From contig JAFFJZ010000007.1 in assembly GCA_018340375.1 (NCBI GenBank), positions 23,472,001 through 23,536,000 of the forward strand: a DNA stretch of 64,000 nt, read 5' to 3'. The stretch's first letter is position 1, and the number at the start of each line of letters is the position of its first letter. Below the pieces are notes generated by a model, which was not told the origin of the DNA, made no database searches, and saw nothing but the letters and a program-made list of their open reading frames with translations. A program made the position numbers and the translations under genes. This document shows positions 10,063 to 63,150 of the stretch, in pieces. This DNA is from Gonatopus flavifemur. Its lineage: Eukaryota; Arthropoda; Insecta; Hymenoptera; Dryinidae.

Positions 10063-10227
10063 CACGGAAAAAAATGACATAGTTAGGATAACTCAAAACA
10101 ATTGGCTATTGACGAGTTGGTTCCCAGCAAACACGACTGCAGGCGTTTTGAAGGACCAGTAATGGCTCTTCATTGGCATTGCGGGGCCATCAGTGGCCCA
10201 TTGAAACGCCAGTAATTATTGTTTGTA

Positions 10228-10700
10228 CACGGAATGAACTCTGGAGCTACCGTAGTATGTGAGCCCGTCGCACTATAGTAGCTTGGCTGCCCACATACGA
10301 GCGTAGTGCCGCTGTGTACCAAAGTTGATTCGACAGTCAGCCAATAGCTTCGTTCGTTCTAAGGTGTTCTAAGTTGCCCCAACTTGCACCAAACCAATCA
10401 ATTCATGTTTATAACTAGAAGAGCCAATCACAAATATCTGGAGCACGTTGGAGCAACTTAGAACACCCTTGAACGAACGAAGCTAATGTGGTATGACGAA
10501 GCGCCGAACTGAACTTGCTCCCGTGTAATACCACGATGGTATGGCTCAGGAGCAAGTTCAGTTCGGCGCTTCGTCATACCACATTGGCTGACTGTCGAAT
10601 CAACTTTGGTACACAGCGGCACTACGCTCGTATGTGGGCAGCCAAGCTACTATAGTGCGACGGGCTCACATACTACGGTAGCTCCAGAGTTCTTTCCGTG
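10228..10700. mobile_element. Long-hairpin CMC-type MITE nested in the 10-kb element
   Basis: The ends CACGGAATGAACTCTGGAGC and GCTCCAGAGTTCTTTCCGTG are flanked by TA. The arms are about 155 bp and almost perfectly complementary, so the DNA can form one very stable hairpin centred near 10535. The left arm is interrupted by a 137-bp insertion at 10347-10483. Confidence 0.8.
10347..10483. mobile_element. 137-bp palindromic MITE inside the hairpin arm
   Basis: The ends GCTTCGTTCGTTCTAAGGTG and CACCCTTGAACGAACGAAGC are inverted copies. TA lies on both sides (10345-10346, 10484-10485), as for mariner-type MITEs. This is the third nesting level: MITE in hairpin in long element. Confidence 0.75.
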
Positions 10701-11650
10701 TAGGGTTGTGAGAACTATTCGTTTAGGCGAGACAACTTTTATATGGTCACTACATCTCGACAGATTTGGTTATGGTGTTGATATAATATGGTAAGACTTG
10801 TTGGGTTATGATAACCAAATGGTTCGTTATAGTAACCAAATTAATTTCGTCATCTCAATGTGGATTCATTTATGAAATTTCCAGCTGTTTTCATAAATTT
10901 GATTAGAAATAAAAAAGACATTCCGTAGGAAAAATTTCTTAGACGTTTTCTTAGACTTTTTCCGGGATAAAATCTACACGGAGAAAAATGCAGTTCGAGA
11001 ATACAGTAATCTTCAATAGAAAATTGGAGAATATTTCTTAAAATCTGTGAATATTTGTTAAGATCTGAGAGTATTTCTTGAGTTCGTGTGTGAGTTACAT
11101 ACCTAATTAAATTATAGTGTAGTTCTGATTGCAATCATTCGAATATTCTAATTTGATTTTGAATATTTCTAAACAAACATTATCACCTTACATGAGAAAA
11201 GTCAAGCTGGGATATACTTCTTTGTTAATTAAAAATTTGTATTCATGAATGTAATTTATGGAAAATGTGAAAGAAAACCTGTCTTTGTATTTTTATACCC
11301 TGAGTTCTTTTAAGGAACCTGAATGAATTTGATTTGTAATTGCACATAGAAAATCAACGTGTTCATGATTATTCCAAAGCAATATTCCTCGATATAAACG
11401 TTTCATTGGCTCAACTGTTTGTGCCGTTTGTGGTTTCGGTTTCAACCTAATTCAAACTCCATTTGACACATTTTGTTGAACGTAATAATTATACAAAAAC
11501 GATCCAAGTCTCAATGTTGGAGTTTGAAGAATTATTTTTCACCAGAAACAATGCATCACAAAGTGTAATATTCAATGAAACGAAATCATCACTTGAGATT
11601 CTGAATTTTGCGCGACATATAATGTATTATGCACAGCAATCATATACGGT

Positions 11651-11736
11651 AGTATAGGCGCGTGGTTAGGGTGTTAGGCTCTAGATAGGTAGAATTAGGT
11701 AGGTGTAGGCAGGTTCGAATCTCGGTTTCGACACGA
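11651..11736 (+). other. tRNA-like module (A box, TAGG repeats, B box) inside a mobile element
   Basis: Reads like a degenerate tRNA gene. There is an A-box-like GGCGCGTGGTTAGGGTGTTA, then a middle filled with TAGGTAG words, then a B box AGGTTCGAATCTC. The T stem pairs only partly and no clear acceptor stem or anticodon arm can be drawn, so a functional tRNA is unlikely. The Pol III internal promoter elements are the conserved part. The same module sits in the inverted copy at 30590-30672, and related ones lie at 21969-22047 and 39429-39506. Confidence 0.6.
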
Positions 11737-12157
11737 TCAATTTGATCAACACTTCACGATTGTGTCTTCGATCACTGTAAAGTTTTCTATCATCAGCCGA
11801 AATCACGTTGAAAAATTTTTTTTATTTCAACGTGAAAAAATACTTTCACTTCATTTTTTTTTCTGATTCATTATTCATCAACATTTATACATGAAAAAAA
11901 GCGAAACATTGAGGTTTTGCTGCGGAATCTCATCACCACTCGTTTAGTCGCCACAACCAAATGCTCGAAGGTGAATGAATACCTCCAAAAGCGTTTGGTT
12001 TCCATAACCAACTGAAAGTTGTACCTTGAACTAAGTGAGCGTATACTATTTTATTTGGTCCCCAGAACCAAGCATTTGGCTCAGCCAAATATAGCCCAAC
12101 ATATTTGGTTGTAGAACCCAAATTCCAGTATACCATAACCATATATTTTTTTCCGTG

Positions 12158-12540
12158 CGTACATGAATTCAGGTCCATACTCATTTTACATTATATTCAA
12201 TTTGCAAGAACATGAAACAGCTATAGTTAAGGCTATAAAATACATTAAATTTAATGTCAAATGTATATGGAACTCAATTCATGTACTTATTTGAAAACAA
12301 CTCCCAGCAAAAACATTAACATTAATGCAGAAATTTCTAACAGTGTATGATATGTCAATCGACTGTATTGATTGATTATACCTTGTTGTGATTCTGACCA
12401 TATTGAGGATGGATGAATGAAATGAAAAAAAAAACACCTTGATCGGACATGTATCGGATATCCAACGAATATCCTCATCCCCACCAAATACCTAATGTTC
12501 AGTAGATGTTCATGATACATTGGATTGTATACATTAAATA
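12158..12540. other. No gene seen; MITE end near 12330
   Basis: Contains AGAAATTTCTAACAGTGTA near 12328-12346, matching the right end of the CACTGTTA-type elements at 12541-12820 and 62109-63148. It may be a solo end. The rest is unassigned. Confidence 0.4.
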
Positions 12541-12820
12541 CACTGTTAGAAAAGTTATGAAGGTTTTTCATATACAATTTATCAAACAGAATTTATAATA
12601 AAATATTGAATTCAATAATATAATTCTTAATGCTAAGAATTTTATTCTTAATGTTGAGAATTCACCTCGTAATTTTAATAACATATTTGTGAAATTTAAT
12701 AAATAATTATTACATCTCAGTAATAAATTGTGAAATTGCATCACTCATATTAATGTTGATAAGAAAATATGATATTCTATAAAGAATTTTGTATTGAATT
12801 TAAGAACTTTTCTAACAGTG
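12541..12820. mobile_element. CACTGTTAGAAAAGTT MITE (280 bp)
   Basis: Ends CACTGTTAGAAAAGTTATG and AAGAACTTTTCTAACAGTG with TA on both sides. The interior is rich in AATTCTTAA/TTAAGAATT words in both orientations. CACTG ends with a 2-bp duplication fit the CMC group. Confidence 0.75.
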
Positions 12821-12893
12821 TATGTATCTAATAGATGTCTGTGCGTTGTATGGGTAGTTTTTGGAAAATAAAATGCATTTTTTTATTTACCGC

Positions 12894-13268: not shown

Positions 13269-13377
13269 GTGAGTACTGTTTTAGTTTCGCAATTTTCTAT
13301 CGAAATGTGTGAAATATTCTGAGAACAATGTTCACTAAGTAGGGATGGACACCCTTGGAGTATTCGAATACTATATA

Positions 13378-21514: not shown

Positions 21515-22426
21515 CACTGAGAAAAAAAGATTGTGAACTCAAAGACGGTTTAGTTCTTTCAACTACATCGTGTGCTTAAATACGGCGAATCTCACGGAAT
21601 AGTTTCGACAACTACATCGTATGTTTGTAAAAATTGATTCCCATCAACTACAGATGTAGTTGACAGAACTGAATGGTAATTTGATCAAATACATCATTCT
21701 TTTAACATAAAAATGATACTTATTACAATCAATTGTACCGTATTTCATAAGATTCAATAATTATTCCAATCAACTCAATAGAAGAATCCGTTCAAAGTTA
21801 CAAGATGTTTAATGCAGGACTATTTCATTTCAAATCATAAATACATTTATGTAAAAAAAATGTGTAAATCAAAAAGTTCATCTTCATTTGTTTACTGTTC
21901 AATCTCTGAAATGCTTCGATATCTCACCATGATGATACCGGTAAGTTTATATATCAAATCTCATTTGAGGGGAATCGAACCTACCTATCTTGAGTTTACC
22001 TACCTATCTGAGACACTAACGTCCTAACAGTTTCTCTACAGCGCGCTTCGCATTTTGCTTTTGCAAAAGTTGTTAATGTACTACATACTCTGTATTCTAC
22101 CATCTCTGATCAGGTGATTTTCAAATAATTATTTCTTTATCACAACTAAAATTGCGTTCAATTACATTTCTCCCACAATTGTTTCAACTAACGAAATGAA
22201 TTGATTCAACTACAACGATAACTCCAGTGAATGACATTGATGTTTGAACAAAATGAACGTTGATGATACTATAACAGTGTGATGTAGTTGGCTGAACGAC
22301 ATCAGCGTAATTTTGTGTGATTGCCTCAACGAAATTATGTTTAGTTCAAATACAATTCCTTCGTGGTAACTATATACAGTCCAAATACACGCTCAAGTTG
22401 AGCTCACTTCATTTTTTTTCTCAGTG
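21515..22426. mobile_element. Long non-autonomous CMC-like element with tRNA-like core (912 bp)
   Basis: Ends CACTGAGAAAAAAAG and CATTTTTTTTCTCAGTG, flanked by CA on both sides (21513-21514, 22427-22428). The subterminal regions repeat TCAACTACA/TGTAGTTGA many times, a different motif from the 10-kb element but the same architecture. The centre holds a minus-strand tRNA-like module at 21969-22047. Confidence 0.75.
21969..22047 (-). other. tRNA-like module (A box, TAGG repeats, B box)
   Basis: On the minus strand, GCGCGCTGTAGAGAAACTG (weak A-box region) is followed by GTTAGTGTCTCAGATAGGTAGG, more TAGGTAGG words and a consensus B box GGTTCGATTCC. A full cloverleaf cannot be drawn. It lies near the centre of the 912-bp element. 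Confidence 0.55.
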
Positions 22427-30166: not shown

Positions 30167-30589
30167 CACGGAAAAAAATGTATGGTTATGCTACACTGGA
30201 ATTTGGTTTCTGCAACCAAATACGTTGGGCTATATTTGGCTCAGCCAAATGCTTGGTTGTGAGAACCAAATAGAATAGTATAGGCTCACTTAGTTCAAGA
30301 CACAACTTTCGGTTGGTTGTGGAAACCAAACGCTTTTAGAAGCATTCATTCACCCTCGAGCATTTGGTTGTGGTGACTAAACGAGTGGTGATGAGATTCC
30401 GCAGCAAAACCTCAATGTTTCGCTTTTTTTCATATATAAATGTTGGTGAATAATGAATCAGAAAAAAAATAAAGTGAAAATATTTATTCACGTTGAAATA
30501 GAAAAAATTTTTCAACGTGATTTCGGCTGATTATAGAAACTTCACAGTGATCGAAGACACAATCGTGAAGTGTTAGTCAAATTGATCGT

Positions 30590-30672
30590 GTCGATACCGG
30601 GATTCGAACCTGCCTACACCTACCTAATTCTACCTATCTAGAGCCTAACACCCTAACCACGCGCCTATACTA
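30590..30672 (-). other. tRNA-like module, copy in the second element
   Basis: Same sequence as 11651-11736 with a few changes. The B box is here closer to consensus (GGTTCGAATCCC) and is followed by GGTATCGACACG. A-box-like GGCGCGTGGTTAGGGTG and TAGGTAG words are retained. Conservation of the boxes between two copies that are otherwise diverging is compatible with either recent common origin or function. Confidence 0.6.
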
Positions 30673-31084
30673 CCGTATATGATTGCTGTGCATAATATAA
30701 TACATATTGCGCAACAAAATCAGAATCTCAAGTGATGATTTCGTTTCATTGAATATTACACTTCGTAATGCATAGTTTCTGGTGAAAAATAATTCTTTAA
30801 ACTCCAACATTGAGACTTGGATTGTTTTTGTATAATTATTACGTTCAACAAAATGTGTCGAGTGAAGTTTAAATTAGGTTGAAACCGAAACCACAAACGG
30901 CACAAACAGTTGAGCCAATGAAACGTTTGTATCAAGGAATATTGCTTTGGAATAATCATGAACACGTTGATTTTCTATTTGCAATTACAAATCAAATTCA
31001 TTCAGGTTCCTTAAAAGAACTCAGGGTATAAAAATACAAAGACAGGTTTTCTTTCACATTTTCCATAAATTATATTCATGAATA

Positions 31085-32228
31085 CAAATTTTCAATTCAC
31101 AAAGAAGTATATTCCAGCTTTACTTTTCTCATGTGAGGTGATAATGTTGGTTTAGAAATATTCCAATGATTGCAATCAGAACTACACTATAATTTAATTA
31201 GGTATGTAACTCACATACGAACTCAAGAAATACTCTCAGATCTTAACAAATATTCACAGATTTTAAGAAATACTCCCCAATTTTCTATTAAAGATTACTA
31301 TATTCCTGAACTGCAGTTTTCTCCGTGTAGATTTTATCCCAGAAAAAGTCTAAGAACACGTCTAAGAAGTTTTTCCTACGGGATGTCTTCTTTATTTCTA
31401 ATCAAATTTATAAAAACAGCTGAAAATCTCATAAATGAATCCACATTGAGATGGCGAAATTAATTCGGTTACTATAACCAACCATTTGGTTATCATAACC
31501 GAACAAGTCTTACCATATTATATCAATACCATAACCAAATCTATCGAGATTCAGTGACCATACAAAAGTTGTCTCGCCTAAACGAATAGTTCTCACAACC
31601 AACCCGTCAATAGCCAATTGTTTTCAGTTATCCTAACTATATCATTTCTTTCCGTGCAAATTTTCAATTCACAAAGAAGTATATTCCAGCTTTACTTTTC
31701 TCATGTGAGGTGATAATGTTGGTTTAGAAATATTCCAATGATTGCAATCAGAACTACACTATAATTTAATTAGGTATGTAACTCACATACGAACTCAAGA
31801 AATACTCTCAGATCTTAACAAATATTCACAGATTTTAAGAAATACTCTCCAATTTTCTATTAAAGATTACTATATTCCTGAACTGCAGTTTTCTCCATGT
31901 AGATTTTATCCCAGAAAAAGTCTAAGAACACGTCTAAGAAGTTTTTCCTACGGGATGTCTTCTTTATTTCTAATCAAATTTATAAAAACAGCTGAAAATC
32001 TCATAAATGAATCCACATTGAGATGGCGAAATTAATTTGGTTACTATAACCAACCATTTGGTTATCATAACCGAACAAGTCTTACCATATTATATCAATA
32101 CCATAACCAAATCTATCGAGGTTCAGTGACCATACAAAAGTTGTCTTGCCTAAACGAATAGTTCTCACAACCAACCCGTCAATAGCCAATTGTTTTCAGT
32201 TATCCTAACTATATCATTTTTTTCCGTG
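31085..32228 (+). repeat. Tandem duplication of 572 bp (element right end)
   Basis: Units 31085-31656 and 31657-32228 differ by only a few bases (for example CTCCCCAATT versus CTCTCCAATT). Both end in CCGTG, so the complete right terminus, including its open frame of 97 codons, was duplicated. Those frames lack recognisable content. Confidence 0.85.
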
Positions 32229-34768: not shown

Positions 34769-34772
34769 TTAA

Positions 34773-36501: not shown

Positions 36502-36641
36502 TTAAAATAATCCCGAGTGACAGATTGAAACGTTTGGGGTTCCTCTTATTTCTCTAACTGTGTTCATGAGCTATCAATGTTACTGTATGATCAGTTGAAG
36601 CATGAACAATCTGAAGCCAAATTGGCTGAAATTGTTATCTA

Positions 36642-38896: not shown

Positions 38897-39428
38897 CATG
38901 GAGAAAACTGGAATAGTGACGTTCACCATTATCGTTTGGTAAACCCTTGTTTCGCTGAAAGCACTAAGCAATCATTTTATTCTACTAAATATAATTCAGT
39001 AAAGATTCGTGATTTCAACAAAATGGTACAGTAGTCCATGTATGATCAATATTACGGATGGTATAGTTAGTTTGACTGACTCAATTGCCTTTACTACGCT
39101 GTTTAGTAATAATAACTATTTTATTCGCGCTCGAGCGGAGTGAACCGAAACGAGTCGAACATAACCGAATATACGAACTCTCTTCGCTTACCGACACTGT
39201 TTTGTTTATAAACGATTTTTTTTTCTCATAAATGTGTTAATGGCAGGGAAGGAGTTGATGATAACTCGTATATGGAATATGCCTATCATGATTCTCGTCT
39301 TAATAATCAGCACTTCACAAAATCAATTTATTTAGAAAATCCAAAATTGTTTCAACAATATCCTCTAATCATAAGTTCTCCAAACACTTATAAGAGATAC
39401 GTAAAGCTAGCAAAATTATAAGTTCAGT

Positions 39429-39506
39429 TTAGCTCAAGTGGTATACGCGTTAGGTGTAGGTAGGTAGGTAGGTAGGCTGTTGAGGTTCGATTCCCGCTTT
39501 CAGCAC
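39429..39506 (+). other. tRNA-like module, best A and B boxes in the window
   Basis: TTAGCTCAAGTGGTATACGC is one or two bases away from an ordinary tRNA D-arm/A box. It is followed by GTTAGGTGTAGG and four TAGG units, then TGAGGTTCGATTCCCGC, a consensus B box. The anticodon and variable regions have been replaced or expanded by the TAGG repeat. The acceptor stem is not evident. It is tRNA-derived, but probably not a decoding tRNA. Confidence 0.65.
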
Positions 39507-39641
39507 CCTGAATGTCATGTGCAATCGATGTTCGGTGCTACAACTTCACGCTCAACCAAACAGTTATGAATGTCAAGCAATCAAAATTTTTGCTGCTTTG
39601 GGAAATTATTTCTAAAGACAACATTAACAACCTTCATAATA

Positions 39642-41664
39642 CAGGGCGTCCCATTTGAAACAGGACAGCTGAATAACTCTTCAGGGAATGGAGAGGGAAA
39701 AAAATTGTTCAGATAAAAGTTGTAGGGTTCGAAGGGGGCCATAAGATGGTGACCTTGAGGTCAATTTTGAGTATAATTGATGGTCAAAGTATGTTGTTCC
39801 AAATGGAAAACCCTACGTTCGACCTCAGAAATGGAAAGAGCGGAAAATTTTACGTCCGAATATGTTAACATATCAGGTCATTTAGAGGTCATTTGAAGGT
39901 CAAAAAACCATTTTCTATGGATTTTCACGGAAAAGCCTCAAACGAGTTGTTTCTCTGACCAAAGTTATTGAAGTTAAAGTGAAACCCCACGTTTCGACCT
40001 TGAATTGAAAGTAAACAGAACTAACCTTCAGAGTTTATTCTTCATATCAGTACGAAAATTATCATTAAGAAGTTTTCATCGTTTACGGTGTAAGTGCGGG
40101 TTCAAAATGGTTTATTCACCTAACGAATGTGTTGATATTTTAATGATCTTGGGTGAGTGTCGCGGAGTGTATCAAAGAGCGTCACTATTGTACAGAGAGC
40201 GGTTTGGAGATCGGCAGCATCATCCTTCTCCAGAAGTCATTCGCCAAGTTGAAAGAAATTGTCGACAAGGAAGGATTGGTCAAGGCCGAAACAATCAAGG
40301 TTTCAACTTTAACGACCCTCGATGCGTTGCTGTTTTAGCAATAATACACATGAATCCTCATGTTAGTTTACGTGATATTGAACGCGATTTGGGTATTCCA
40401 CGCAGTACGGCACACAGAATTCTACAAGCTGCTCAATATCATCCGTACCACATCACACTGACCCAAGAATTATCTCAACAAGATATGCAGAATCGGGTTA
40501 ACTTTTGCCATTGGGCTTTACAGAGGTTGAACGAAACGCCCGATTTCTTTCGATATGTTCTTTTCAGTGATGAATCAACGTTTCAAAGTACTGGCTTGTT
40601 AAATCGTCACAATAGCCACTATTGGTCAGCGCAAAACCCGCACTGGACTCAACAAGTTGATCATCAGCATCGGTGGAGTATAAATGTTTGGTGTGGAATT
40701 CTAGACAATCAAGTTATTGGGCCGTATTTTTTTGATGGAACTGTTAACGGTCCTAATTATCTACAGTTTTTACAGAATGAATTACCAGTTCTCATGGAAG
40801 ATGTGACATTAGCAACTAAGCAGAGGATGTGGTATCAGCAAGACGGTGCACCACCACACTTTGCTCGATGTGTGAGGGATTATCTAAATATCCTTTTCCC
40901 CAATCGTTGGATTGGTCGAGGTGGATTTGTACTGTGGCCGGCAAGATCTCCTGATCTCACCCCTCTAGATTTTTATTTGTGGGGTTACGTAAAAAATGTC
41001 GTTTATACCAACCGACCAACAACACCTGTGGATCTACAACAACGCATCAGATACGCAATTGCGAATATTCGTGCAGAAGTTTTTCAGTCTGTTCTTGGAA
41101 ACTTTCGACGCCGGCTGGAGTTATGTATTGAAGTAAATGGCGATCAATTCGAACATCTCCTGCAATAAGTGTGTCTTACCCGTCAACGGATTTGTGCCAT
41201 CTGTAATTATAAAACGACGAACTGGAAAAATAAATAATTTTTTAATTATTGTTTCAAATTTGGCATTCATTATCGTTCTCAAGGTCGAATTCAAGGTCGA
41301 AACGTGAGGTTTCACTTTGACTTTGATAACTTTGGTCAGAGAAACAACTCGTTTGAGGCTTTTCCGTGAAAATCCATAGAAAATGGTTTTTTGACCTTCA
41401 AATGACCTCTAAATGACCTGATATGTTAACATATTCGGACGTAAAATTTTCCGCTCTTTCCATTTCTGAGGTCGAACGTGGGTTTTTCCATTTGAAAAAA
41501 CATACTTTGACCATCAATTATGCTTAAAATTGACCTCAAGGTCAAATTCAAGGTCATCATCTTATGGCCCCCTTCGAACCCTACAACTTTTATCTGAACA
41601 ATTTTTTTCCCCCTCCATTCCCTGAAGAGCTATTCAGCTGTCCTGTTTCAAATGGGACGCCCTG
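39642..41664 (+). mobile_element. DD41D Tc1/mariner-superfamily transposon with very long inverted repeats (2023 bp)
   Basis: TA flanks both ends (39640-39641, 41665-41666). The terminal inverted repeats are about 365 bp (39642-40006) and 377 bp (41288-41664), starting CAGGGCGTCCCATTTGAAAC, and are close to identical apart from small gaps. A single intact frame lies between them. Ordinary mariners have ends of about 30 bp, so this is a separate lineage, compatible with the DD41D groups described within the superfamily. Confidence 0.9.
40107..41168 (+). CDS. DD41D transposase, intact
   Basis: 353 codons from Met at 40107 (MVYSPNECVDILMILGECRG). An upstream in-frame Met at 40005 lies inside the terminal repeat and is less likely. 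The N-terminal 120 residues form an HTH/DNA-binding part (HHPSPEVIRQVER, VSLRDIERDLGIPRSTAHRI). The catalytic residues are D155 (LFSDESTF), D246 (YQQDGAPPH) and D288 (LTPLDFYLWGYVK), with 41 residues between the last two. WPARSPDLTPLDFYLWG is characteristic of this insect lineage. No disruption is seen, so the copy may be able to encode active enzyme. Confidence 0.93.
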   Translation: MVYSPNECVDILMILGECRGVYQRASLLYRERFGDRQHHPSPEVIRQVERNCRQGRIGQGRNNQGFNFNDPRCVAVLAIIHMNPHVSLRDIERDLGIPRSTAHRILQAAQYHPYHITLTQELSQQDMQNRVNFCHWALQRLNETPDFFRYVLFSDESTFQSTGLLNRHNSHYWSAQNPHWTQQVDHQHRWSINVWCGILDNQVIGPYFFDGTVNGPNYLQFLQNELPVLMEDVTLATKQRMWYQQDGAPPHFARCVRDYLNILFPNRWIGRGGFVLWPARSPDLTPLDFYLWGYVKNVVYTNRPTTPVDLQQRIRYAIANIRAEVFQSVLGNFRRRLELCIEVNGDQFEHLLQ

Positions 41665-42160
41665 TATAACAAAAACTTTTTGATTGTTGAATCGAATTCA
41701 CATTGTTGTTTAGTAAAAATGATCATGCCCATTCCGCGGAATAGATGATTTGTGTGGTGGAATCAATTATGCGACCATTCACTGTTTGGTACGAATAACA
41801 ATGCTTCGGTAATCGAATGAAATACAAGTTTAGTAAAATTAATTTGACTTGTTATGGTGACATGAACTGTATGTGCATTCGGTTTCTGATACTAAACAAT
41901 TGGTCTGTCCATATTTCACTAAATCGTCAAGTACGAGATACCATTGGTTTGATTGATATCACTATTCAGTTTTCTCCGTGCATAATTTTTCTTATCAATT
42001 CCAATCTGGTCCGTGGATAGTGAGCTACCACAGTAATTTCAACCGTATTTTTCTCTCCGTGTATCAATTATTATAAATGTATTATCCAAGCATCACACTG
42101 AAAATATTTTTGGTTGTGGCCAGGAAAGTTGTTTTATCATAATCAAATATTCTAATGATA

Positions 42161-51746: not shown

Positions 51747-51758
51747 CCCCCCTTTCTT
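51747..51758 (-). promoter_or_regulatory. Polypurine tract
   Basis: Read on the minus strand, AAGAAAGGGGGG lies directly upstream of the TG of the 3' LTR, where plus-strand DNA synthesis is primed. Confidence 0.85.
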
Positions 51759-53317: not shown

Positions 53318-53368
53318 GGTAACTTATAACATAAGAAAACGAGACTCAAATTACATCTCGGTAGCCGA

Positions 53369-54898
53369 TTAAAGCCTTAAAGGGACCTGGCTTATTTGAT
53401 CAGTTGTATTATTTGAGCTGTCACTAACAGTACCTGGTCGAAGATCTTTGAGGTGTGCACGAATAAACTTCCCATCCTTCTCCAACTCAAAAACATTATT
53501 TCCTATTTTCGCAACCACCCTATGACCGGTGGAAAACTTATTAGCCAGTTTGGCTGAAAACGCGTCCGCGGCTGACGACAAATGATGCTCGCGCTTGCTA
53601 ACTATTTCCCCCATCCGGGGTTCCCAATCACCTTTGTCCTTGTTATAGTGATGGCTTTGTTTCGCAAATGCTTTTGCCAGGTTAACCCTGACTAGGTCGT
53701 ATGATTCCCGGAGAATTTTTAATCTATCCTCGTGATCGACCGTCAGTGGGCTATCCTGTGATTCTAATTCCGACTTGAATGTCTTAGGCGGATAAATTTC
53801 CCGACCGTAGTTGAGGAAAGCCGGCGTAAACTGTGTTGACTCGTGTTTTGCCGTGTTTATCGCGAAAGACAACTCGGGGATGTATTTGTCCCAGGACCGC
53901 TGCGTTTTTTCAATAAATTGGGATATCATTGTCCCCATGACCTTGTTCATTCTTTCGACCGGATTGCACTGAGGCGAATATGCCGGAGTGCGTTGATGCG
54001 TGATTCCGTATTGTGCCATAAGGCCCGTAAAATCTTTCCCTATGAATTGACTCCCGTTGTCGGAAATCACTAGACGGGGGCACCCGTATCTTAAAATAAC
54101 TTTTTCCTTAAATGTTCTAACGATTGCAGGAGCTTTTGGTTGCCTCAAAGGCTGGATTTCAGTCCACTTTGTGAATTTATCTTGCATGACCAGCAAGTAG
54201 CAATGCCCCTGGGAAGACCTCGGTTTCGGACCGATGATGTCTATAGACACTATCTCCCAGGGTTGCGTTGCGTTAGTAGTGCCCATCGTTCCTGAGACTG
54301 GCCGCTGGGATGGCTTGAACTCTTGACACTTACTGCATGACCGAACATGGTGTGCTATGTCTCTGTTCATCCGTGGCCAGAAGTAAGATTTTGAAATCCG
54401 CGCGATTGTTTTGGCAATGCCAAGATGGCCGGCGGTCGGAGAGTCGTGGTTCTCCAAGAGAACTTGTTTGCGGGCAGACTCAGGAACGCATAATTTCCAT
54501 GCGTCCTGCCGTTCTTCGTAATTGAGACTATGCAAGATATGCCTATACAGTTTATCATGCCGAATGCAATATTCGGGATATCTATCAGGTTCTCGGCGGA
54601 CTTTATCGAGAATATTCTGGTACCACCGATCATCGGCTGAGACACTTGCTACGATGATGGTCTCTTCTAAAATTTCTTCCGAATCTTCGGCAGGACTTCC
54701 GCTACACGGATTGCGGGATAAGGCGTCAGCAACCTTGTTCAACTTGCCTTTTCGATAGACGATATCGAATCGAAATTGTTGGAGGTAGATACTCCATCGA
54801 GCAACGCGACCTGCGGGACTCTCTAAGGTCGACAGCCACTTTAAAGACTGATGGTCTGTCACCACGGTAAATTTGTAACCTTCTAGATAAGGTCTCAT
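53369..54898 (-). CDS. pol: pol, RNase H end plus integrase
   Basis: Residues 1-65 are the second half of RNase H (VVTDHQSLKWL with D15; VYRKGKLNKVADALSR). The integrase zinc finger follows (H151, H158, C188, C191), and then the catalytic core with D220 (SIDIIGP), D280 (ISDNGSQF) and E315 (NPVERMNK), 34 residues between the last two. The tail ends AHLKDLRPG. Integrase joins the reverse-transcribed DNA to the host genome. The true frame enters from upstream. The Met at 54898 is internal. The break with the preceding segment is at about 54931-54935. Confidence 0.93.
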   Translation of the reverse strand: MRPYLEGYKFTVVTDHQSLKWLSTLESPAGRVARWSIYLQQFRFDIVYRKGKLNKVADALSRNPCSGSPAEDSEEILEETIIVASVSADDRWYQNILDKVRREPDRYPEYCIRHDKLYRHILHSLNYEERQDAWKLCVPESARKQVLLENHDSPTAGHLGIAKTIARISKSYFWPRMNRDIAHHVRSCSKCQEFKPSQRPVSGTMGTTNATQPWEIVSIDIIGPKPRSSQGHCYLLVMQDKFTKWTEIQPLRQPKAPAIVRTFKEKVILRYGCPRLVISDNGSQFIGKDFTGLMAQYGITHQRTPAYSPQCNPVERMNKVMGTMISQFIEKTQRSWDKYIPELSFAINTAKHESTQFTPAFLNYGREIYPPKTFKSELESQDSPLTVDHEDRLKILRESYDLVRVNLAKAFAKQSHHYNKDKGDWEPRMGEIVSKREHHLSSAADAFSAKLANKFSTGHRVVAKIGNNVFELEKDGKFIRAHLKDLRPGTVSDSSNNTTDQISQVPLRL

Positions 54899-54915
54899 TT
54901 TCTGGATACCCCAGA

Positions 54916-55728
54916 CTACGGCAAGGCATTCCTTTCTGTCACCGAATAGTTTGCCTCGCTCTTATTCAGCGTTCTGCTGGCGTAAGCGATGACCTTTTCC
55001 CCCTGATCTGTATTCTGCGTTAAGACGGCGCCTAGACCATACTTACTCGCATCCGTTTGTAAAATGAATTCTTTAGAGAAATCTGGAGGCGCGAGAACTG
55101 GAGAGGATACAAGACAGTTTTTCAACGAATCAAACGCGACCTGTTCGACTTCCGTCCAATGCCATTTCGATCGCTTTTTCAATAGAGCTGTTAACGGCTT
55201 CGTTAGCTCGGAACAATTAGGTATAAAGCGCCGATACCATGAAACCATACCGATGAACTGACGTAGTTCTTTGATGTTTGCGGGTACCGGAATTTGATTG
55301 ATGGCTTGAACCTTCGAAGGGTCGGTTTTAATGCCTTCGTTGTCTATCACATGACCGAGATACACGATTCTTTGTTGTAAAAACTGACTTTTCTCTGTAT
55401 TAATTTTAAGACGGGCGTGTCGCAATCTTTTAAAGATTTCCTTGAGAATAGCTAAGTGATGGTCTAGGGTTTCGCTAATGACGATAATATCGTCCAAATA
55501 GACTTCGACAAAGGGTTGCAGATCAGGGGTAATTAGATCGTTTAGCAATCGTTGGAAGGTTGCGGATGCGGAATGAAGCCCGAAAGGCATGACCTTGAAT
55601 TGAAACAAGCCCCTACGAGGCACAGTAAAAGCGGTAATAGGTTTACTTTCGGGACTTAGAGGTACCCGCCAGTAGCCATTCTTTAAGTCTATTGTTGAGA
55701 TAAATTTCGCGTTGCGTAATTTGTTCAA
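54916..55728 (-). CDS. pol: pol, reverse transcriptase core plus start of RNase H
   Basis: No ATG at the beginning (the first codon is TTG), because the frame continues from the protease/RT segment upstream. Residues 8-60 hold FISTIDLKNGYWRVPL and FKVMPFGLHSASATFQRLL, 77-80 are the catalytic YLDD, and 120-175 are the thumb/connection (YLGHVID, QFIGMVSWYRRFIPN). RNase H starts at FILQTDASKYGLGAVL with D226. The frame closes at 54916 after VTERNALP, beside a short G/A run, where integrase-side pol resumes in the -1 frame. Confidence 0.93.
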   Translation of the reverse strand: MNKLRNAKFISTIDLKNGYWRVPLSPESKPITAFTVPRRGLFQFKVMPFGLHSASATFQRLLNDLITPDLQPFVEVYLDDIIVISETLDHHLAILKEIFKRLRHARLKINTEKSQFLQQRIVYLGHVIDNEGIKTDPSKVQAINQIPVPANIKELRQFIGMVSWYRRFIPNCSELTKPLTALLKKRSKWHWTEVEQVAFDSLKNCLVSSPVLAPPDFSKEFILQTDASKYGLGAVLTQNTDQGEKVIAYASRTLNKSEANYSVTERNALP

Positions 55729-56444
55729 CGTATCATTGATGTGGGGAAGCGGGTATGCGTCCTTTCTGAGACTTTATTCACTTTTCTAAAGTCGATACAA
55801 AACCTGTAACTCTTGTTCTTCTTTTTAACCAATACGATCGGCGAACTCCATGGACTACTGGATGGTTCGATAACGCCTTCTTCCAGCATCTTATCGACCT
55901 CGTTATCAATTACTTCCTGCATAGCAGGATTACGCGGATAATATCGAGACTTAATCGGTTCAGTACCTGGAAAGACTTTAATTACATGCTCGCCGATCGG
56001 AGTTGGACCTTTCACGGAGTCGAATTTAGCAATTTCCTGATTGATTAAATCGCGAGCCCTGTTCTCTAGCTTGGATTGCTCGGTTAGAGTTTGCACTGAG
56101 GTGCGGGCACTCTCTGTTGGGTTACCCCACACTACCTGGAAATTCAATTTCGCGAGGCTATCTACCCCGAAGAGAACGTGGTCATGATAGTTTTCGACGA
56201 TACAGTATGATAATGGAACGAGCTTGTCGGTGATTTTAGTTAATATCACGGCGGTGCCGCGGGTCTGAATTCCGCGACCATCGAGGACGGTCAAATCGCG
56301 GGGAGCGGAGTTGAAGTAAACACAAAGACCGTGTTCTTGAGCTTTTTCAAATAGCGCGTTATCAATTATAGAAGTGGTGGCCCCGGTATCGGCTAATCCC
56401 CAAAGGTCTCGCCCGCGATATCGACTTTTAATCGCGGTCGGCAA
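55725..56444 (-). CDS. pol: pol, protease plus N-terminal reverse transcriptase
   Basis: The aspartic protease active site is ADTGATTSIID (D19-T20-G21). The RT fingers appear at about 183-230 (MLEEGVIEPSSSPWSSPIVL, then YRFCIDFRKVNKVSE). The frame then leaves homology near 55763, where a run of three A on the element strand lies at the break, and stops at 55725. It overlaps the end of gag by about 50 nt. Protease would process the Gag and Pol polyprotein inside the particle. Confidence 0.9.
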   Translation of the reverse strand: MPTAIKSRYRGRDLWGLADTGATTSIIDNALFEKAQEHGLCVYFNSAPRDLTVLDGRGIQTRGTAVILTKITDKLVPLSYCIVENYHDHVLFGVDSLAKLNFQVVWGNPTESARTSVQTLTEQSKLENRARDLINQEIAKFDSVKGPTPIGEHVIKVFPGTEPIKSRYYPRNPAMQEVIDNEVDKMLEEGVIEPSSSPWSSPIVLVKKKNKSYRFCIDFRKVNKVSERTHTRFPTSMIR

Positions 56445-57445
56445 TCACTCGCGTGAACATTTACGAACGTGACCTCTGCGGGAGGGTTAGTGGCTAAGGT
56501 TTGCCCTGACTGGTTGTTCGTTGGAGGAACCACCGAATCCCTAGCTGGAGTGTTGTTCCGCGAGTTAGCCGGTCTGGAAGGATTTGTGTATGAGTTATTT
56601 CGGGATGGTTGAGGACCATCACTTCTTGACTGAAAGTTACCGTTTCCCGTCGAGTTGGGAGCGTGATGCGGGCGGCGATCAGAATACGAATTACTATTGG
56701 GTTGCGGGCGATAAGGTCTATTTACCGGCTGCACCGTAATGCACTTACATTCTGTGGACCAAACTTCCTTTTTACCGCACCTTGAACAAAATCTGATCGC
56801 TTTATTACGGCAATCAAAACGCGTGTGACCCTTTTGTCCACAACGCCAGCAGTGTGTTCGTGAGTTATATGAAGAATCTAAAGTGTTCACGTTTCCGGGT
56901 TTAGGTTTCTTGGGACCCTCGTAGGCGGTTTCAGGCATAGTGGAATGATGACTACCTGGAGGAGGCTTGTATAGTTCGCCTTCTTTAAGGGCTTTCTCGT
57001 ATTCGCAAGCATACTGAATTAAGTCAGCCACAGAAGTAACCTCCCGTCGTCGAATATTCAGCTTGTACTCACACCGTAAATTGGTGTAGAGTCTGTCTAA
57101 TTGTGCCTTTTGGTCCATTCCTCCGTACCGTCTCATTAACGTCTGTAAGTTAGTAATATATTCACGGGCTGTCTCTTTAGGCCCCTGAGTACGGTTACGT
57201 ATCTCATCTTCTAACTGTCGGTCAGCGTCAACGGGAAGATAAAAGATCTTCAAGTCTCGGGCAAAGTCTTCCCACTTGGTCCAATTTTGCTTATTATTTC
57301 GGTACCAAAGCAGGGCCTTATCACGGAGTAGTAACGGAATGCAAGCCAAAAGCTGTTCAGATTGAACATTGAAACTAGCGCTCAATTCATCGACGCGTTC
57401 CAAGAAAGTTCTTAAGCCCGAGCCTCCGTTATAAGTGACTCCCAC
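56393..57445 (-). CDS. gag: gag, capsid and nucleocapsid part
   Basis: Residues 1-160 resemble the retrotransposon gag capsid (GLRTFLERVDEL, DKALLWYRNN, WEDFARDLKIFYLP, ETAREYITNLQTLMRRY). The nucleocapsid has one CCHC zinc knuckle, C199-C202-H207-C212, followed by a second, incomplete knuckle, CSRCGKKEVWSTEC, without the His. The first codon is GTG, so the frame is a continuation of the N-terminal gag ORF, which it overlaps at 57412-57445. It stops at 56393 beside a G run at the pol boundary. Confidence 0.9.
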   Translation of the reverse strand: MGVTYNGGSGLRTFLERVDELSASFNVQSEQLLACIPLLLRDKALLWYRNNKQNWTKWEDFARDLKIFYLPVDADRQLEDEIRNRTQGPKETAREYITNLQTLMRRYGGMDQKAQLDRLYTNLRCEYKLNIRRREVTSVADLIQYACEYEKALKEGELYKPPPGSHHSTMPETAYEGPKKPKPGNVNTLDSSYNSRTHCWRCGQKGHTRFDCRNKAIRFCSRCGKKEVWSTECKCITVQPVNRPYRPQPNSNSYSDRRPHHAPNSTGNGNFQSRSDGPQPSRNNSYTNPSRPANSRNNTPARDSVVPPTNNQSGQTLATNPPAEVTFVNVHASDCRPRLKVDIAGETFGD

Positions 57446-58104
57446 TTTCGTACTTGCTCCTGTATGTTAGGAATCCTGTTCTGTGTGTTAGTCAAGAGAT
57501 TTCGTAATACCCTACTTATTTCGGCCTCGTTAGAACTGGATACTACAGGTGGAGATGGCTGATTGACTTCCGCGATTGGTACGTGAGTAGCTCTTTCTCC
57601 TTCTAACTCGCGAATTCGCTCGCGCAAGTCTCTGACTAAGGAATCCGCGGCTTCCTTTTCCAATTCTACTCGGTTTTGTTCTTCTACCAGGGCTCGTTCT
57701 CTTTCTATCATGCCCTGTTCGTATCGTATCAGTTCGGCCCGTACCTCTTGTCTTATTTCATCCTCGATTTGTCGAGCGAGGGTGTCTCTGTCTATTGTGT
57801 TGCGTGTTTCGTCGGGGTTGACGTTGGCCGGATGGTTCTGATCAGGGTCACTAGGAACCGTGTTATCATGATTGGTTGCGTCATCAGGACTGACCTGAGG
57901 GTCATGAAGATCCTCCATACTTGAATTGCGACTTGACTGTTGCGAGCGACTGCCGACAATTGAATCGCGTAATTTCGTTTTTAAGGTGTTTACCGCGTCT
58001 GACGGGTCGAATTCTACGCCCCTCTTATTTAACTCGGAGATAACCTCGTCCTTTTTTAAGGACCAAATCCAGGAGGTTCTGTGTGGCGGTGGTGTACGAT
58101 GCAT
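57412..58104 (-). CDS. gag: gag, N-terminal part with SAP-like and coiled-coil segments
   Basis: True ATG at 58104. Residues 15-51 (SLKKDEVISELNKRGVEFDP...) look like a SAP-type helix-extended-helix motif that may bind nucleic acid. A polar, Asn/Asp/Ser-rich linker follows. Residues about 125-175 are a charged coiled coil (ERERALVEEQNRVELEKEAA). The frame reaches VRKW and then ends 9 codons later. The capsid part continues in the -1 frame at a G run (57441-57443). Confidence 0.85.
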   Translation of the reverse strand: MHRTPPPHRTSWIWSLKKDEVISELNKRGVEFDPSDAVNTLKTKLRDSIVGSRSQQSSRNSSMEDLHDPQVSPDDATNHDNTVPSDPDQNHPANVNPDETRNTIDRDTLARQIEDEIRQEVRAELIRYEQGMIERERALVEEQNRVELEKEAADSLVRDLRERIRELEGERATHVPIAEVNQPSPPVVSSSNEAEISRVLRNLLTNTQNRIPNIQEQVRKWESLITEARA

Positions 58105-58511
58105 AATGTATTCGAATTCAATGCTACGGGAAAACCCGGCAACAGCTATTCGCGCAACAAGGACAAAGACGTTAACAGAAAGTTACCCCAAAGGTATCGT
58201 TTAAACGGGTGTCTGGACAGAATTCGCAAATCTAGTGAATTGTCCACCGGTCAAGAGTTATTACCTCAATTAATATCCTGGCCAATCAGCACTTACAGAT
58301 TCAAACTATAATTTTCCCTGTCTGTTTAGTGGTTTTCGCTAAGCGACAATCTTGCAAAATCCTCAAATAAAGAAGAGACTCTTTCAGCAGACAGCGCTCT
58401 ACCTGAATCGAAAACTTTAAGAACCACTGAGAAGAACAAACACAGGAGTGGTTCCGGTTATTCGTTTATGTTCTTGGATAATCGACCAATTACCTTAAAT
58501 TGACAATTAAG
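58105..58511 (-). other. 5' untranslated leader of the retrotransposon
   Basis: About 400 nt between the primer site and the gag ATG. No ORF of interest. A packaging signal would be expected here but cannot be seen. Confidence 0.6.
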
Positions 58512-58529
58512 GTCCCTGTTCGGGCGCCA
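58512..58529 (-). promoter_or_regulatory. Primer-binding site for tRNA-Lys
   Basis: The minus strand reads TGGCGCCCGAACAGGGAC, 7 nt after the 5' LTR. It is an exact 18-nt complement of the 3' end of the tRNA-Lys used as primer by several retroviruses and by Osvaldo-type elements. Confidence 0.93.
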
Positions 58530-58536
58530 AATAATC

Positions 58537-60337
58537 TGTGACGTTTCAAACTGACGCGTTGACGATTTTAAGCGTCTCTAATTAAATTAATTAATTAGCC
58601 CCCGATGATGCCTCTGGCTCGTCGGATTTCCAGGGTCCTTTGACTGAAGGTTGGGGTACGCGGGTCGACAGATTATTAAATCGAAACAGAATTAAGTTTG
58701 AAATATGAAAATTTATTAATAAATGAGAAAAAACACAAGAAATTTGTCTAATTGACAAATTTTAATAACTGATCAAATAATCAGGGTAATGCGTACAAAT
58801 TAAACTTAGAAGATACATAAAACAGCTAGAAGTGCTGAAAGCATGGGGTATAAAGTTAAATTGTTAAATTGTAAAATAAAGTAGCTAACGAGTCCGGACT
58901 TTTTATCGTTAATCGTGTGCACACGAGACTTATAATGTACGCGGGCTATAGTTAGGCGAGAGTACCGGAAGTTATATCGGAAAACCGTAACCGATTTCTA
59001 GATTCGCGATGCGGATGACTTTACGAACGCGTCGGGATAATTTTGAAAGAATCGCAGATGATTCTCATGAAACAAATCAATATTCTTCTCTGATTGGCTC
59101 AGATGGAGTCCAACAGATTCGGGATACCGGAAAAATCACGACTGTGGCATAGGATCTTTTACTACTTGTCGTTGATTGGCCGTGAGAGGTTGGCCCTAAT
59201 AGCAAGCCGTGAGAGGTTGGCTCTAAGCTACCCAGGCTGGATGGTGCCTTCTAATGGTGAAGAAGGTGTTGTGCTCGACTTCGACCGCCCCTTCTCCTAA
59301 CCAGCTTTTATTCTTGAAGACGGTTTTGTGCTCGTCTTCCCACCTTTCCCTAACAAAAATGATTTTAAACTTTGGAAGAAGGTATCGTGCTCGACTTCCA
59401 CCACCTTTCCCTATGCAAAAGCCTACGCTAAGCTATGGCTGCCACAGCCGGACTTCAATTTCGCAACGTCAGTGGAGGGTTCTCTCTCACTTCTGTTGAA
59501 TGCTTTCAGCTGCTTTATAGCCTGCTTACCGGCCTGTCTGGATGAGACAGTGAAGTGAAGAGACCGTCGCCAGGACCCCTTACTTATATCCGGCTAGAGT
59601 TATTCGTAACTCTGTGCTACCCGTGATTCTACCTACCGCCCCTAGCGGCGATGAACGGTTGTCACGAAGCAACATCTTGTCTCTTTCTAACAGAGATGCT
59701 GCCCCGTGTTATTTTCGAGCATGCGCGGTGCGTTCGGTATTGCGTATGATTGACTACGGGTCTGAGCGGTGACCGATGGATGGCGCTGTTGCTGTGTTTG
59801 TTTATGTCCTGTCAACCGATCGCGATGTTGACCGGCATCTTTTTATTTAACAATTACGTAATTGTTAATTAACCGAGTGAGTTCGCGAATAAATTAAAAA
59901 TCGGTACGCGAGTGAATTTACGTGCGCAGGAGGGTTGACGCGGACTAACCTGGGTTTTCTTCGCATCGGTAAGCATCATTGACCATAATATCTATGCATC
60001 TTAACATTAAACTTAACATTCTAATTGATGTCCTTTATTTATTTACAGGTGATTCTAATCGGACTAAATATCGCGACAGGCCAGATGCCATGCAGGTAAG
60101 TATGTATCGTTCTGATTTTATTTATTATAATGGTCTATTATATTCATTATATGTTTACAGGTGTTCCTCGGATAATGTCTTTGCCCAGGAGGGGCCATTC
60201 TGGTCATTCCACCTGTCATGTGGCCTGTTGCGATACTCAGGTAAGGTAGTTCCGATTAACCCTCTTTTACATCTATTTTATAATCATATTCTTCTGTTAC
60301 AGGTATCTAGACGAGCCAATCGTCGAGGCTCGTTGCA
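58537..60337 (-). repeat. 5' LTR (1801 bp)
   Basis: Same sequence as 49945-51746 apart from one lost C and one substitution. In element orientation it starts TGCAACGAGCC and ends CAAACGTCACA-like (TG...CA). It should hold the promoter for the genomic RNA. The exact start site cannot be told from sequence alone. Confidence 0.95.
59969..60302 (+). other. Three intron-like segments, antisense in the 5' LTR
   Basis: Copies of the segments in the other LTR: 59969-60048, 60096-60160 and 60241-60302, with mini-exons 60049-60095 and 60161-60240. From this LTR, antisense transcription on the + strand would run out into flanking host DNA at 60338, whereas from the 3' LTR it would run into the element body. 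Confidence 0.5.
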
Positions 60338-61335: not shown

Positions 61336-61561
61336 CACGGAGAAAAATATATGGGATTGATTACCATTCGCTCCAGTTCTCATCGCGACTTTAGAATAGG
61401 AGTTGAGAGATGACTCGCGGTTTGGTGATCGTTCTTATGTTAACCTACCGTTTCAATGGTGATGTAAACAGTTTATCTGATCTTGAATGGTTTTATCGCA
61501 ATTCTGAAATATCTGTCACCGAATTACTATTCTTTCTAGTTACCGTATACTTTCCTCAGTG
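61336..61561. mobile_element. CMC-type MITE (226 bp)
   Basis: Ends CACGGAGAAAAATATATGG and TACTTTCCTCAGTG with CA on both sides (61334-61335, 61562-61563). The interior has GATTACCAT/TGGTGAT words in both orientations. Confidence 0.75.
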
Positions 61562-62106
61562 CAGGTGACTTGCTCCTACCTGTTTCTGTACAGATTTTGT
61601 CATTTTGGCCTGTTTTTGTCTGGCATTTTCGACAGGACCGAATTAGGAAAAATTGCGCGGTGTGTTCTTCAGAGAGATTCAGAGGAATTCAGAAAAATTC
61701 ACTCAAATTCAGAGGAAGCTTTGAGTTCCAAATAAATGAATGAATTAAAAACAATTCAGAAAAATTTCGGAAAATTTCTAAATCTCTATTAGAAAAATTC
61801 CGAGAGAATCACAGAAAATTGGAGATATTTAAGATGTATCACTATCTGACAAGTCTCTAACTTCCTCTAAATTACTCTGAATATCTCTGGAAAATGTCCC
61901 AAAATATAGAGATTCAAAGATTTTTTTTACCAAAGAATCGTACCGATGAAAAATTTTGTTCCGATTTTTTTTCTCTCTCAAAGAACACAGTAAATCAAAG
62001 ATTTTTCATATTGAGGGCATCATTTCATTTTTAGAGTATAGTCAACTCGAATTAGTTTGAGTATGCCAGTAAAATTCCTCAGATATTCGAAAATTATTCT
62101 TCTAAA
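61562..62106. other. AATTCAGA-rich repeat, no gene
   Basis: GATTCAGAGGAATTCAGAAAAATTC words fill 61675-61810, like 49150-49478. The rest is unassigned. Confidence 0.45.
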
Positions 62107-62605
62107 TACACTGTTAAAAATTTCTTGAAATTTCATGTGCATTTCATGTACATATGTGAATGAAAATTCAATTTTTGAGAACTGAAATAGGAATCCAAAT
62201 AAATGTTATTGAATTTTCAAGTCATTGTGCATGAAAATTGAAATTAATGTACAGGTGATTGAAAAAACTTAGGAAAATTTAATCCAGTATAACAACATAA
62301 AATATCATAATTATAATCAAATCATGGCTCTAATGGCATCCAACTGGAAACAACAAAACTGATCCAAGTTGGTTTGGATTTGAAAAAAAATCTAAAAATG
62401 CTCATATCTCAAAAACTAACCTTCAAAAAACGGAAAATTCTTGCATTATGGCTGCAGAATAGGCCCTTGAAATACAATTTTTCTCACTTGGGACATCCTT
62501 TATACTAACGCTTTGACGAAGTCATCCACGTATCCATTTCAACTATGTACTAGTTGGATCTCACGGTTTGTTAAGTGTTTCTACATCACAAGTACATCTT
62601 CCCAG

Positions 62606-62853
62606 ATAACATTCTGTGCGCGCAAAGTTTGAGCCTCGAGAGCCACGTCTTTATGCGCGCAGTTCGCCAGTTTTTTGCTAGCAAATAATACTATCACTCG
62701 CCATATGCACGCAAATAGCAATCATGCTCACGAATGAGCGCGATAGCTTGCAGTTCTGTCAACAGAAAGCGACGCACATGGATCCGACTTTGCTAGCGAT
62801 TCTGTAACTCGATTTGCACGTGAATCGCTTACATTTGCGCGCAAAATGTTATT
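62606..62853. mobile_element. GCGCGCAAA-ended MITE nested in the 62-kb element
   Basis: ATAACATTCTGTGCGCGCAAA and TTTGCGCGCAAAATGTTAT are inverted ends. GCTAGCAAAT, TTGCTAGCGA and GCGCG words recur inside. It is clearly more GC-rich than its surroundings. Confidence 0.65.
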
Positions 62854-62925
62854 AGAGTTGATTCACAATTTTGAAGAATGAACGCAAGGTCATATAAGCA
62901 GAAAAATGTTCTCTTCCACATAAGT

Positions 62926-62993
62926 GGCAGTGGCTTGAGTGATAGAGCTTTGGTGTCCGGTTTCGACGTCCCGCGTTCACATCTTGTGAAGGT
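62926..62993 (+). other. Weak tRNA-like module
   Basis: AGTGGCTTGAGTGATAGAGC resembles a tRNA A box, but the B-box position (GCGTTCACATC) is degenerate and TAGG repeats are absent. It is listed because it sits in the same place within the same kind of element as the four better modules. Confidence 0.3.
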
Positions 62994-63150
62994 AATTTTT
63001 TTTTCTCAACAATTATGAACATGTGCATAAAATTTAAAGAACTGGCTCTCGAATTTTCAAGTACAGTGCGAATTATTTTTCCATTACGTGAGTGGAAGTT
63101 GCTTCCATTACATGTAATTTAAAATTCAATCAGAAATTTCTAACAGTGTA

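What the first reader, a model, noticed from the sequence alone, without database searches (positions are those of the whole stretch)
10063..63148. A class of long non-autonomous transposons that carry a tRNA-like Pol III module at their core
Five elements (10063-12157, 21515-22426, 30167-32228, 38897-41980 minus its insertion, 62109-63148) share one plan. The ends are CACNG...CNGTG-type, with CATGG in one place. Each has a 2-bp duplication and subterminal arrays of a motif private to the element (GGTT-N5-AACC, TCAACTACA, TTTAGTAAA and so on). At the core sits a tRNA-like stretch, clear in four elements and weak in the fifth, with A and B boxes but no decoding cloverleaf. Three of the five are otherwise unrelated in sequence yet keep the module in the middle. 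Seen: the boxes, ends and duplications. Inferred: the module serves the element, for example Pol III transcription, insulation or recruitment of replication or transcription factors.
Basis: partly seen in the sequence, partly recalled or inferred. Interest (0 to 1): 0.85.

Follow-up and report, generated by a model that had tools for sequence, protein, structure and literature searches.

The report
DNA transposons with built-in tRNA-like promoters
In what looks like a parasitoid-wasp genome, several otherwise unrelated families of cut-and-paste jumping elements carry the same kind of small internal promoter, normally used for tRNA genes, followed at a set distance by a stop signal, which suggests the elements need it.

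Summary
Four of the five intervals (10063-12157, 21515-22426, 30167-32228, 38897-41980) are TIR elements with CACNG-type ends, 2-bp duplications, private subterminal arrays and an internal A-box/B-box module. The first and third are copies of one family, so the window holds three module families. The fifth (62109-63148) is a real element, but its boxes score at chance. In the host genome the module pattern gives 1,591 matches (control 0). I fetched 14 loci and kept 15 lineages, the window's three included. Apart from a few pairs they share only the module. Yet 11 of 15 have a good A box, not part of the search pattern, 50-65 bp before the B box, and in 14 of 15 the first T5 lies 86-144 nt after the B box (null 17%). 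That is the layout of a Pol III gene making an RNA of roughly 170-230 nt. Outer T-stem pairs and RNA fold are not kept. Within families the module evolves no slower than its surroundings in E2 and E4, so the case for function rests on between-family comparison. Best reading: non-autonomous CACTA-like transposons with a conserved Pol III unit. Paired CACNG ends were seen in 5 of 15 lineages; one lineage contradicts them. Transcription is untested.

The parts
10063..12157 (+). Element E1: CACGG...CCGTG TIR element, 2-bp flank CG; contains nested element 10228-10700
11655..11722 (+). E1 tRNA-like module: degenerate A box (TAGGCGCGTGGTTAGG) to B box (GGTTCGAATCT, 11712-11722)
11816..11823 (+). E1 T-run 93 nt after the B box (predicted Pol III terminator)
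21515..22426 (.). Element E2: CACTGAG...CTCAGTG, 912 bp, 2-bp flank CA
21971..22038 (-). E2 tRNA-like module (B box 21971-21981, weak A box up to 22038)
21871..21875 (-). E2 T5 run 95 nt after the B box
30167..32228 (-). Element E3: second copy of the E1 family, inverted, with a 572-bp tandem duplication of one end (31085-31656 / 31657-32228); flank TA
30600..30667 (-). E3 tRNA-like module (same as E1)
38897..41980 (+). Element E4: CATGGAGAAAACTG...CAGTTTTCTCCGTG, flank CA, interrupted by a Tc1/mariner-like insertion at about 39644-41668 and itself inside a short element 38610-42061
39430..39494 (+). E4 tRNA-like module: A box TAGCTCAAGTGG to B box GGTTCGATTCC (39484-39494)
39587..39591 (+). 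E4 T5 run 92 nt after the B box
62109..63148 (+). Element E5: CACTGTTA...TAACAGTG, flank TA; nested insertion about 62601-62857; tRNA-like stretch 62931-62984 followed by T9 at 62996-63004, boxes at chance level

Best explanation
These are non-autonomous TIR DNA transposons, CACTA-like in layout (CACNG ends, 2-bp pyrimidine-purine duplication, family-private subterminal arrays), that carry an internal type-2 RNA polymerase III transcription unit: A box, B box about 55 bp later, and a T5 terminator about 90-140 nt after the B box. Shown: the parts, their spacing, and that they recur in lineages whose other sequence is mostly unrelated. Inferred: TFIIIC/TFIIIB and Pol III bind there, which keeps the element's chromatin open or bounded so that transposase reaches the subterminal arrays, and the terminator stops Pol III before it runs into the downstream array. 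RNA fold and body sequence are not kept, so I think occupancy and transcription matter more than the RNA product.
For: Module pattern: 1,591 own-genome matches against 0 for the reversed control (tandem TAGG units give several matches per place). A box, absent from the search pattern, scores >=7 of 8 in 11 of 15 lineages (null 4.5%) and 8 of 8 in 6 of 15 (null 0.36%), starting 50-65 bp before the B box in those 11. First T5 after the B box at 86-144 nt in 14 of 15 (null for 80-150 nt 17.4%, binomial 2.9e-10 if lineages are independent); A5 control 2 of 15 (null 17%); T5 inside -75..+80 of the B box in 1 of 15 (null 49%). Five families with both ends seen (E1, E2, E4, L130, L131): T5 at 92-103 nt and B box to downstream end 389-462 bp, while their left arms do not align at all (10 pairs, z -0.4 to 0.5) and 32 of 36 right-arm pairs of nine lineages have z below 3. 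Outer T-stem pairs occur in 5, 6 and 1 of 15, i.e. chance. 0 of 32 distinct short elements (<500 bp, matching flanks) in the held DNA carry the module.
Against: Within families the module evolves no slower than the rest in E2 and E4. Both CACNG ends with matching flanks were seen in only 5 of 15 lineages; lineage L137 has 20 copies whose boundaries (about 752 and 1406-1420) do not look like CACNG ends. L127 has no clear A box, E2's is weak, L136 has no T5 until 465 nt. T4 runs are not specially placed (within 40 nt 33% against 39%), and in 5 of 15 lineages a T4 lies within 25 nt of the B box, which could stop Pol III earlier. A5 is also somewhat rare inside the unit (4 of 15 against 49%), so part of the T5 avoidance may be composition. 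The T5 range was chosen after seeing nine families; L127 and L131 share their downstream arm. No expression, ChIP or autonomous partner was available.
Confidence: 0.55

Rival explanations
1. The module is a tRNA-derived SINE (or its remnant) that inserted into, or was captured by, several transposons and is carried along without function.
For: A tRNA-like head, a body of about 95 nt and a T-run is the layout of a SINE transcription unit. An insect SINE with a mariner-derived 3' part is in print (HaSE2, PMC3272025, passages read). Mosaic sharing of the module plus one arm between lineages is seen (L127/L131, L124/L096).
Against: No lineage whose copy boundaries I could see ends at the A box and the T-run: E1, E2, E4 and L130 end at TIRs; L137 copies run from about 214 bp before the A box to about 397 bp after the B box; L124/L096 share 792 bp. 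Lineages share no common body or tail apart from a few related pairs. Neutral cargo should not keep spacing and terminator while everything else diverges.
Confidence: 0.2
2. Common descent with too little time: the families stem from one recent ancestor and the module is merely the slowest-changing or recently converted segment, spread by recombination between TAGG arrays, with no function.
For: TAGG repeats sit between the boxes in every lineage (but this was part of the search pattern). L127 and L131 share the B-box side and downstream arm but not the upstream side, a breakpoint within or beside the TAGG stretch. The distance to the downstream end is similar in five families. Four of 36 right-arm pairs do show z of 3 or more.
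Against: Arms of different families mostly do not align, so time was ample. The T5 position is kept although the roughly 95 nt between B box and T5 are mostly unrelated in sequence.
Confidence: 0.15
3. The Pol III RNA itself is the selected product, for example a trans-acting RNA used by the transposition machinery or a decoy against silencing.
For: A terminator at a set distance implies a discrete RNA of roughly 170-230 nt.
Against: Neither body sequence nor fold is shared; mean fold z is 0.16 for 15 predicted RNAs against -0.99 for 60 control segments of the same loci.
Confidence: 0.1

Closest known systems
CACTA / En-Spm (CMC) DNA transposons and their non-autonomous derivatives
   Same: CAC-type inverted ends, short duplication, arrays of a private motif in both subterminal regions (architecture recalled, not from a call)
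   Different: 2-bp pyrimidine-purine duplication here; no transposase found in the elements; an internal Pol III unit is not a described part of the family as far as I know
tRNA-derived SINEs (e.g. HaSE1/HaSE2 of Helicoverpa armigera, PMC3272025)
   Same: A and B boxes, tRNA-like head followed by a body
   Different: HaSE1 copies have the tRNA-like region at the 5' end, a repeat tail and 5-18 bp duplications (PMC3272025, passages); here the unit lies inside a TIR element with a 2-bp duplication
ISL2EU / PHIS elements (PMC4482050)
   Same: 2-bp duplication
   Different: Their duplication is AT and their ends usually begin GG (PMC4482050, passages); not so here
Extra-TFIIIC (ETC) sites and tDNA insulators (recalled)
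   Same: B box used as a DNA-level protein site without a tRNA product
   Different: Here an A box and a T5 terminator recur as well, as in a transcribed gene

Membership tests
CACTA / En-Spm-like DNA transposon | CAC-type terminal inverted repeats | tested here: met
   and copies
CACTA / En-Spm-like DNA transposon | short target duplication (2-3 bp, recalled) | tested here: met
   2 bp, identical in 57 of 67 copies; 7 of 61 joined-flank queries with a gap-free match across the junction
CACTA / En-Spm-like DNA transposon | subterminal motif arrays at both ends | tested here: met
CACTA / En-Spm-like DNA transposon | moved by a CACTA-type transposase | not tested
   no frame of 120 codons or more in the elements except the one inside E4's mariner-like insertion; no autonomous partner was sought in the genome
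tRNA gene | foldable cloverleaf recognised by tRNA models | tested here: not met
   ARAGORN 0; Rfam 0 at gathering, no tRNA match at E<=10 in the stretches searched
tRNA-derived SINE | copy boundaries at the tRNA-like head and a 3' tail, with target duplications of several bp | tested here: not met
   for E1, E2, E4, L130 and, by boundaries, L137 and L124; not resolved for other lineages
Pol III type-2 gene | A box and B box at suitable spacing, T-run terminator | tested here: met
   (11 of 15 and 14 of 15 lineages); transcription itself not testable here
ISL2EU | AT duplication and GG-starting ends (PMC4482050) | tested here: not met
Tc1/mariner MITE | duplication always TA (recalled) | tested here: not met
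   CA, TG and CG are common

The most novel reading that the evidence does not exclude
A large, old group of DNA transposons in which an internal Pol III transcription unit (A box, B box, spaced terminator) is an obligatory cis component, kept while all other non-terminal sequence turns over between families: DNA transposons whose mobility or survival depends on host Pol III machinery.
Probability: 0.35. Interest if true: 0.88.

Novelty: new variant of a known kind. Interest (0 to 1): 0.7.

Why it matters
Class II transposons are not known to me to carry their own Pol III promoter; that is a hallmark of SINEs. A recurrent Pol III unit with a spaced terminator, in unrelated families and with hundreds of copies, would tie DNA-transposon success to TFIIIC/Pol III occupancy, be a natural test of tDNA-like elements as anti-silencing devices, and be a source of Pol III loci and small RNAs scattered through a genome. 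It is also a warning for annotation: such elements could be miscalled as SINEs or tRNA pseudogenes.

Tried and rejected
Pair test E1 versus E3: module 2 mismatches in 93 columns, but 157 of 1281 windows do as well; uninformative. First copy alignment mixed strands and gave false divergences; redone oriented. A window-wide A/B scan with a loose A box put E4, E3 and E2 on top, but 2 of 8 shuffles reached maxima as high as theirs (24.0 and 26.2); replaced. T4 as terminator showed no enrichment; T5 did. RNA fold: not better than chance. Viral contigs: 55 stretches; 16 of the 55 matches were called as tRNA genes by ARAGORN (recounted), and the others looked to me like phage tRNA remnants or unrelated sequence; I did not search them for CACNG ends. 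Prokaryote genome contigs (a stricter pattern): 0. Left ends of L125, L135 and L137 were not found in 1 kb more; L135 has a mariner copy there. A direct count of module versus arm 30-mers genome-wide and a boundary search for L128 did not complete. Literature: ten searches (two searches found no paper) listed none that I could recognise, from title and start of abstract, as describing a Pol III module in DNA transposons; I read found passages of PMC4482050, PMC11893794, PMC3072357 and PMC3272025 only, and search listings for the rest. Most subscription papers and the repeat databases are not covered.
Full report
What the window is. GC is about 33-37% over most of it; it holds a gypsy-like LTR element with 99.9% identical repeats (49944-51746 / 58536-60337) and Tc1/mariner-like genes. 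The window lies in a 636 Mb, 402-contig unnamed assembly. The closest named relatives of one gypsy Pol fragment are from the braconid wasps Cotesia glomerata (67% identity over 70% of the query) and Fopius arisanus (61% over 72%), so a parasitoid wasp is my inference for the host.

The elements. A scan for CA(C/T)NG inverted ends found 33 pairs, among them the five named intervals with identical 2-bp flanks. E1 and E3 are inverted copies of one family (92.5% over 1464 bp). In the host genome E1, E2 and E4 are multicopy families: 40 of 3752, 40 of 293 and 40 of 320 first-look candidates were scored (E1's count may be inflated by its nested element). Of the 68 copies held, ends were resolved in 67; the 2-bp flanks are identical in 57, of which 54 are TA, CA, TG or CG. 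Of 61 joined-flank queries 15 had a match spanning the junction in the held DNA, 7 with a gap-free one; the best are E2 of L095 in L088 (196 bp, 90%, no gap) and E4 of L088 in L095 (the same pair seen from the other side); those of the window's E1 reach only 16-33 bp left of the junction. Subterminal arrays are private to each family. E5 is also a multicopy TIR element, with TA flanks in the two copies read.

The module in the window. TAGGTAGG-N(0-25)-GGTTCGAWYC occurs at four places, each inside E1-E4, with none in 100 shuffles. Against 200 shuffles of each element the best A+B pair is reached by none in E2, E3 and E4, by 9 in E1, and by 192 in E5. E5 has a tRNA-like stretch with a fair A box and T9 soon after, present in two other copies, but no tRNA model accepts it. 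No element has a recognisable tRNA gene.

The module in the genome. The pattern has 942 forward and 649 reverse matches; the reversed control has none (TAGG arrays count several times per place). Among the listed places (contig C1 up to 33.9 Mb only) I saw more than a dozen different inner sequences and fetched 14 loci. Setting aside two that duplicate others (L129, L133) and adding E1, E2 and E4 leaves 15 lineages. All-against-all comparison shows that, apart from a few lineage pairs (L125/L129, L133/L134, L127/L131, L126/L128, some ends), the module is what is shared; part of that sharing is built in by the search pattern.

Between-lineage constraint. (1) The A box was not part of the pattern. 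It scores at least 7 of 8 in 11 of 15 lineages (null 4.5%) and 8 of 8 in 6 of 15 (null 0.36%), starting 50-65 bp before the B box in those 11; L127, L132, E1 and E2 score 5-6 (E1 does have TAGGCGCGTGG at -57 by eye). (2) The first T5 after the B box lies at 86-144 nt in 14 of 15 (137, 89, 101, 89, 86, 103, 97, 144, 98, 131, 115, 93, 95, 92; exception L136 at 465); null for 80-150 nt 17.4%, binomial 2.9e-10. T5 is avoided inside the unit (1 of 15 against 49%). The A5 control is flat at 80-150 nt (2 of 15, null 17%), though A5 is also somewhat rare inside the unit (4 of 15 against 49%). The range was noticed on nine families first, and L127/L131 share their downstream arm, so the P-value is optimistic; in the five families with both ends seen the distances are 93, 95, 92, 103 and 97. 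T4 is not specially placed, and 5 of 15 lineages have a T4 within 25 nt of the B box. (3) The outer three T-stem pairs occur in 5, 6 and 1 of 15, so the tRNA fold is not kept; the two inner pairs are fixed by the pattern and say nothing. (4) Predicted RNAs (171-228 nt, where the start is assumed 12 nt before the A box and L136's end is assumed) fold no better than chance (mean z 0.16; control -0.99). (5) From B box to the downstream end is 432-436 bp in 7 of 8 E1 copies, 457 in E2, 462 in E4, 446 in L130 and 389 in L131, while left-arm lengths range from 225 to over 900 bp; single candidate ends in L125 (447) and L135 (464) fit, L132 (576) and L124 (about 657) do not. L131's pairing is weaker than the others (4 differences in 14, flank TA).

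Results against a function. Within families the module is not slower: E2, 30 copies, 0.0179 against 0.0163 overall; E4, 30 copies, 0.0320 against 0.0265; E1, 9 copies, is slower, 0.0120 against 0.0286. The copies were chosen by similarity to module-bearing queries, so their modules do not measure retention. A rough estimate from the listed rows (19 E4-type and 8 E2-type places in 33.9 of 636 Mb) gives about 356 and 150 places, against 320 and 293 candidates.

Is the whole class CACNG? Both ends with identical flanks were seen for E1, E2, E4, L130 and L131. One end is supported for L124 (two copies with different flanks begin at the same CACTGAG) and L132 (its CACTGAG end abuts an interrupted E1 copy). 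L137's 20 copies have boundaries near 752 and 1406-1420 that do not read CACNG. The rest are unresolved. Of 32 distinct short CACNG elements (112-473 bp) with matching flanks in the held DNA none carries the module; of 51 long pairs 48 do, but most of those are the E2 and E4 copies fetched by similarity, and the three without are E5, the doubtful 34860-36414 and a composite of two short elements in L134.

Mechanism. The parts match an internal Pol III promoter and terminator. Because neither cloverleaf, fold nor body sequence is kept, I favour a DNA-level role: TFIIIC/Pol III occupancy that keeps the element accessible, with the terminator protecting the downstream transposase-binding array from read-through. 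Every step beyond the anatomy is inference.

Novelty. Ten literature searches listed nothing I recognised as describing this in DNA transposons. The nearest found is the reverse case, SINE HaSE2 with a mariner-derived 3' region (PMC3272025, passages). Subscription papers and repeat databases were not searchable, so priority is uncertain.

Noticed in passing
30167-32228: E3 carries a tandem duplication of one end, 572 bp at 99% identity (31085-31656 / 31657-32228), so it has two successive right ends.
   Followed up: partly
49944-60337: Young gypsy-like LTR element, LTRs 99.9% identical; a Pol fragment is closest, among named entries, to braconid wasp proteins.
   Followed up: partly
38610-42061: E4 is nested in a short CACGGAGAGAAT element and itself holds a Tc1/mariner-like element with an uninterrupted frame of 396 codons.
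   Followed up: no
L127, L131, L124, L096, L125, L129: Mosaic sharing: lineages share the module with one arm but not the other; in L127/L131 the breakpoint is in or near the TAGG stretch.
   Followed up: partly
A-B interval of most lineages: TTAGG, the common insect telomere unit (recalled), recurs between the boxes next to TAGG repeats; it may just be D-loop sequence plus repeat growth.
   Followed up: no
34769-36505: 1.7-kb element with 0.68-kb inverted arms (91%), no module; an inner CACTG pair with GC flanks is probably fortuitous.
   Followed up: no
window and L057-L137: 32 distinct short CACNG elements of 112-473 bp, 23 of them with TA duplications; many are palindromic.
   Followed up: partly
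62109-63148: The E5 copies read (L141, L142) lack the 62601-62857 insertion and carry an extra segment after the T-run.
   Followed up: partly
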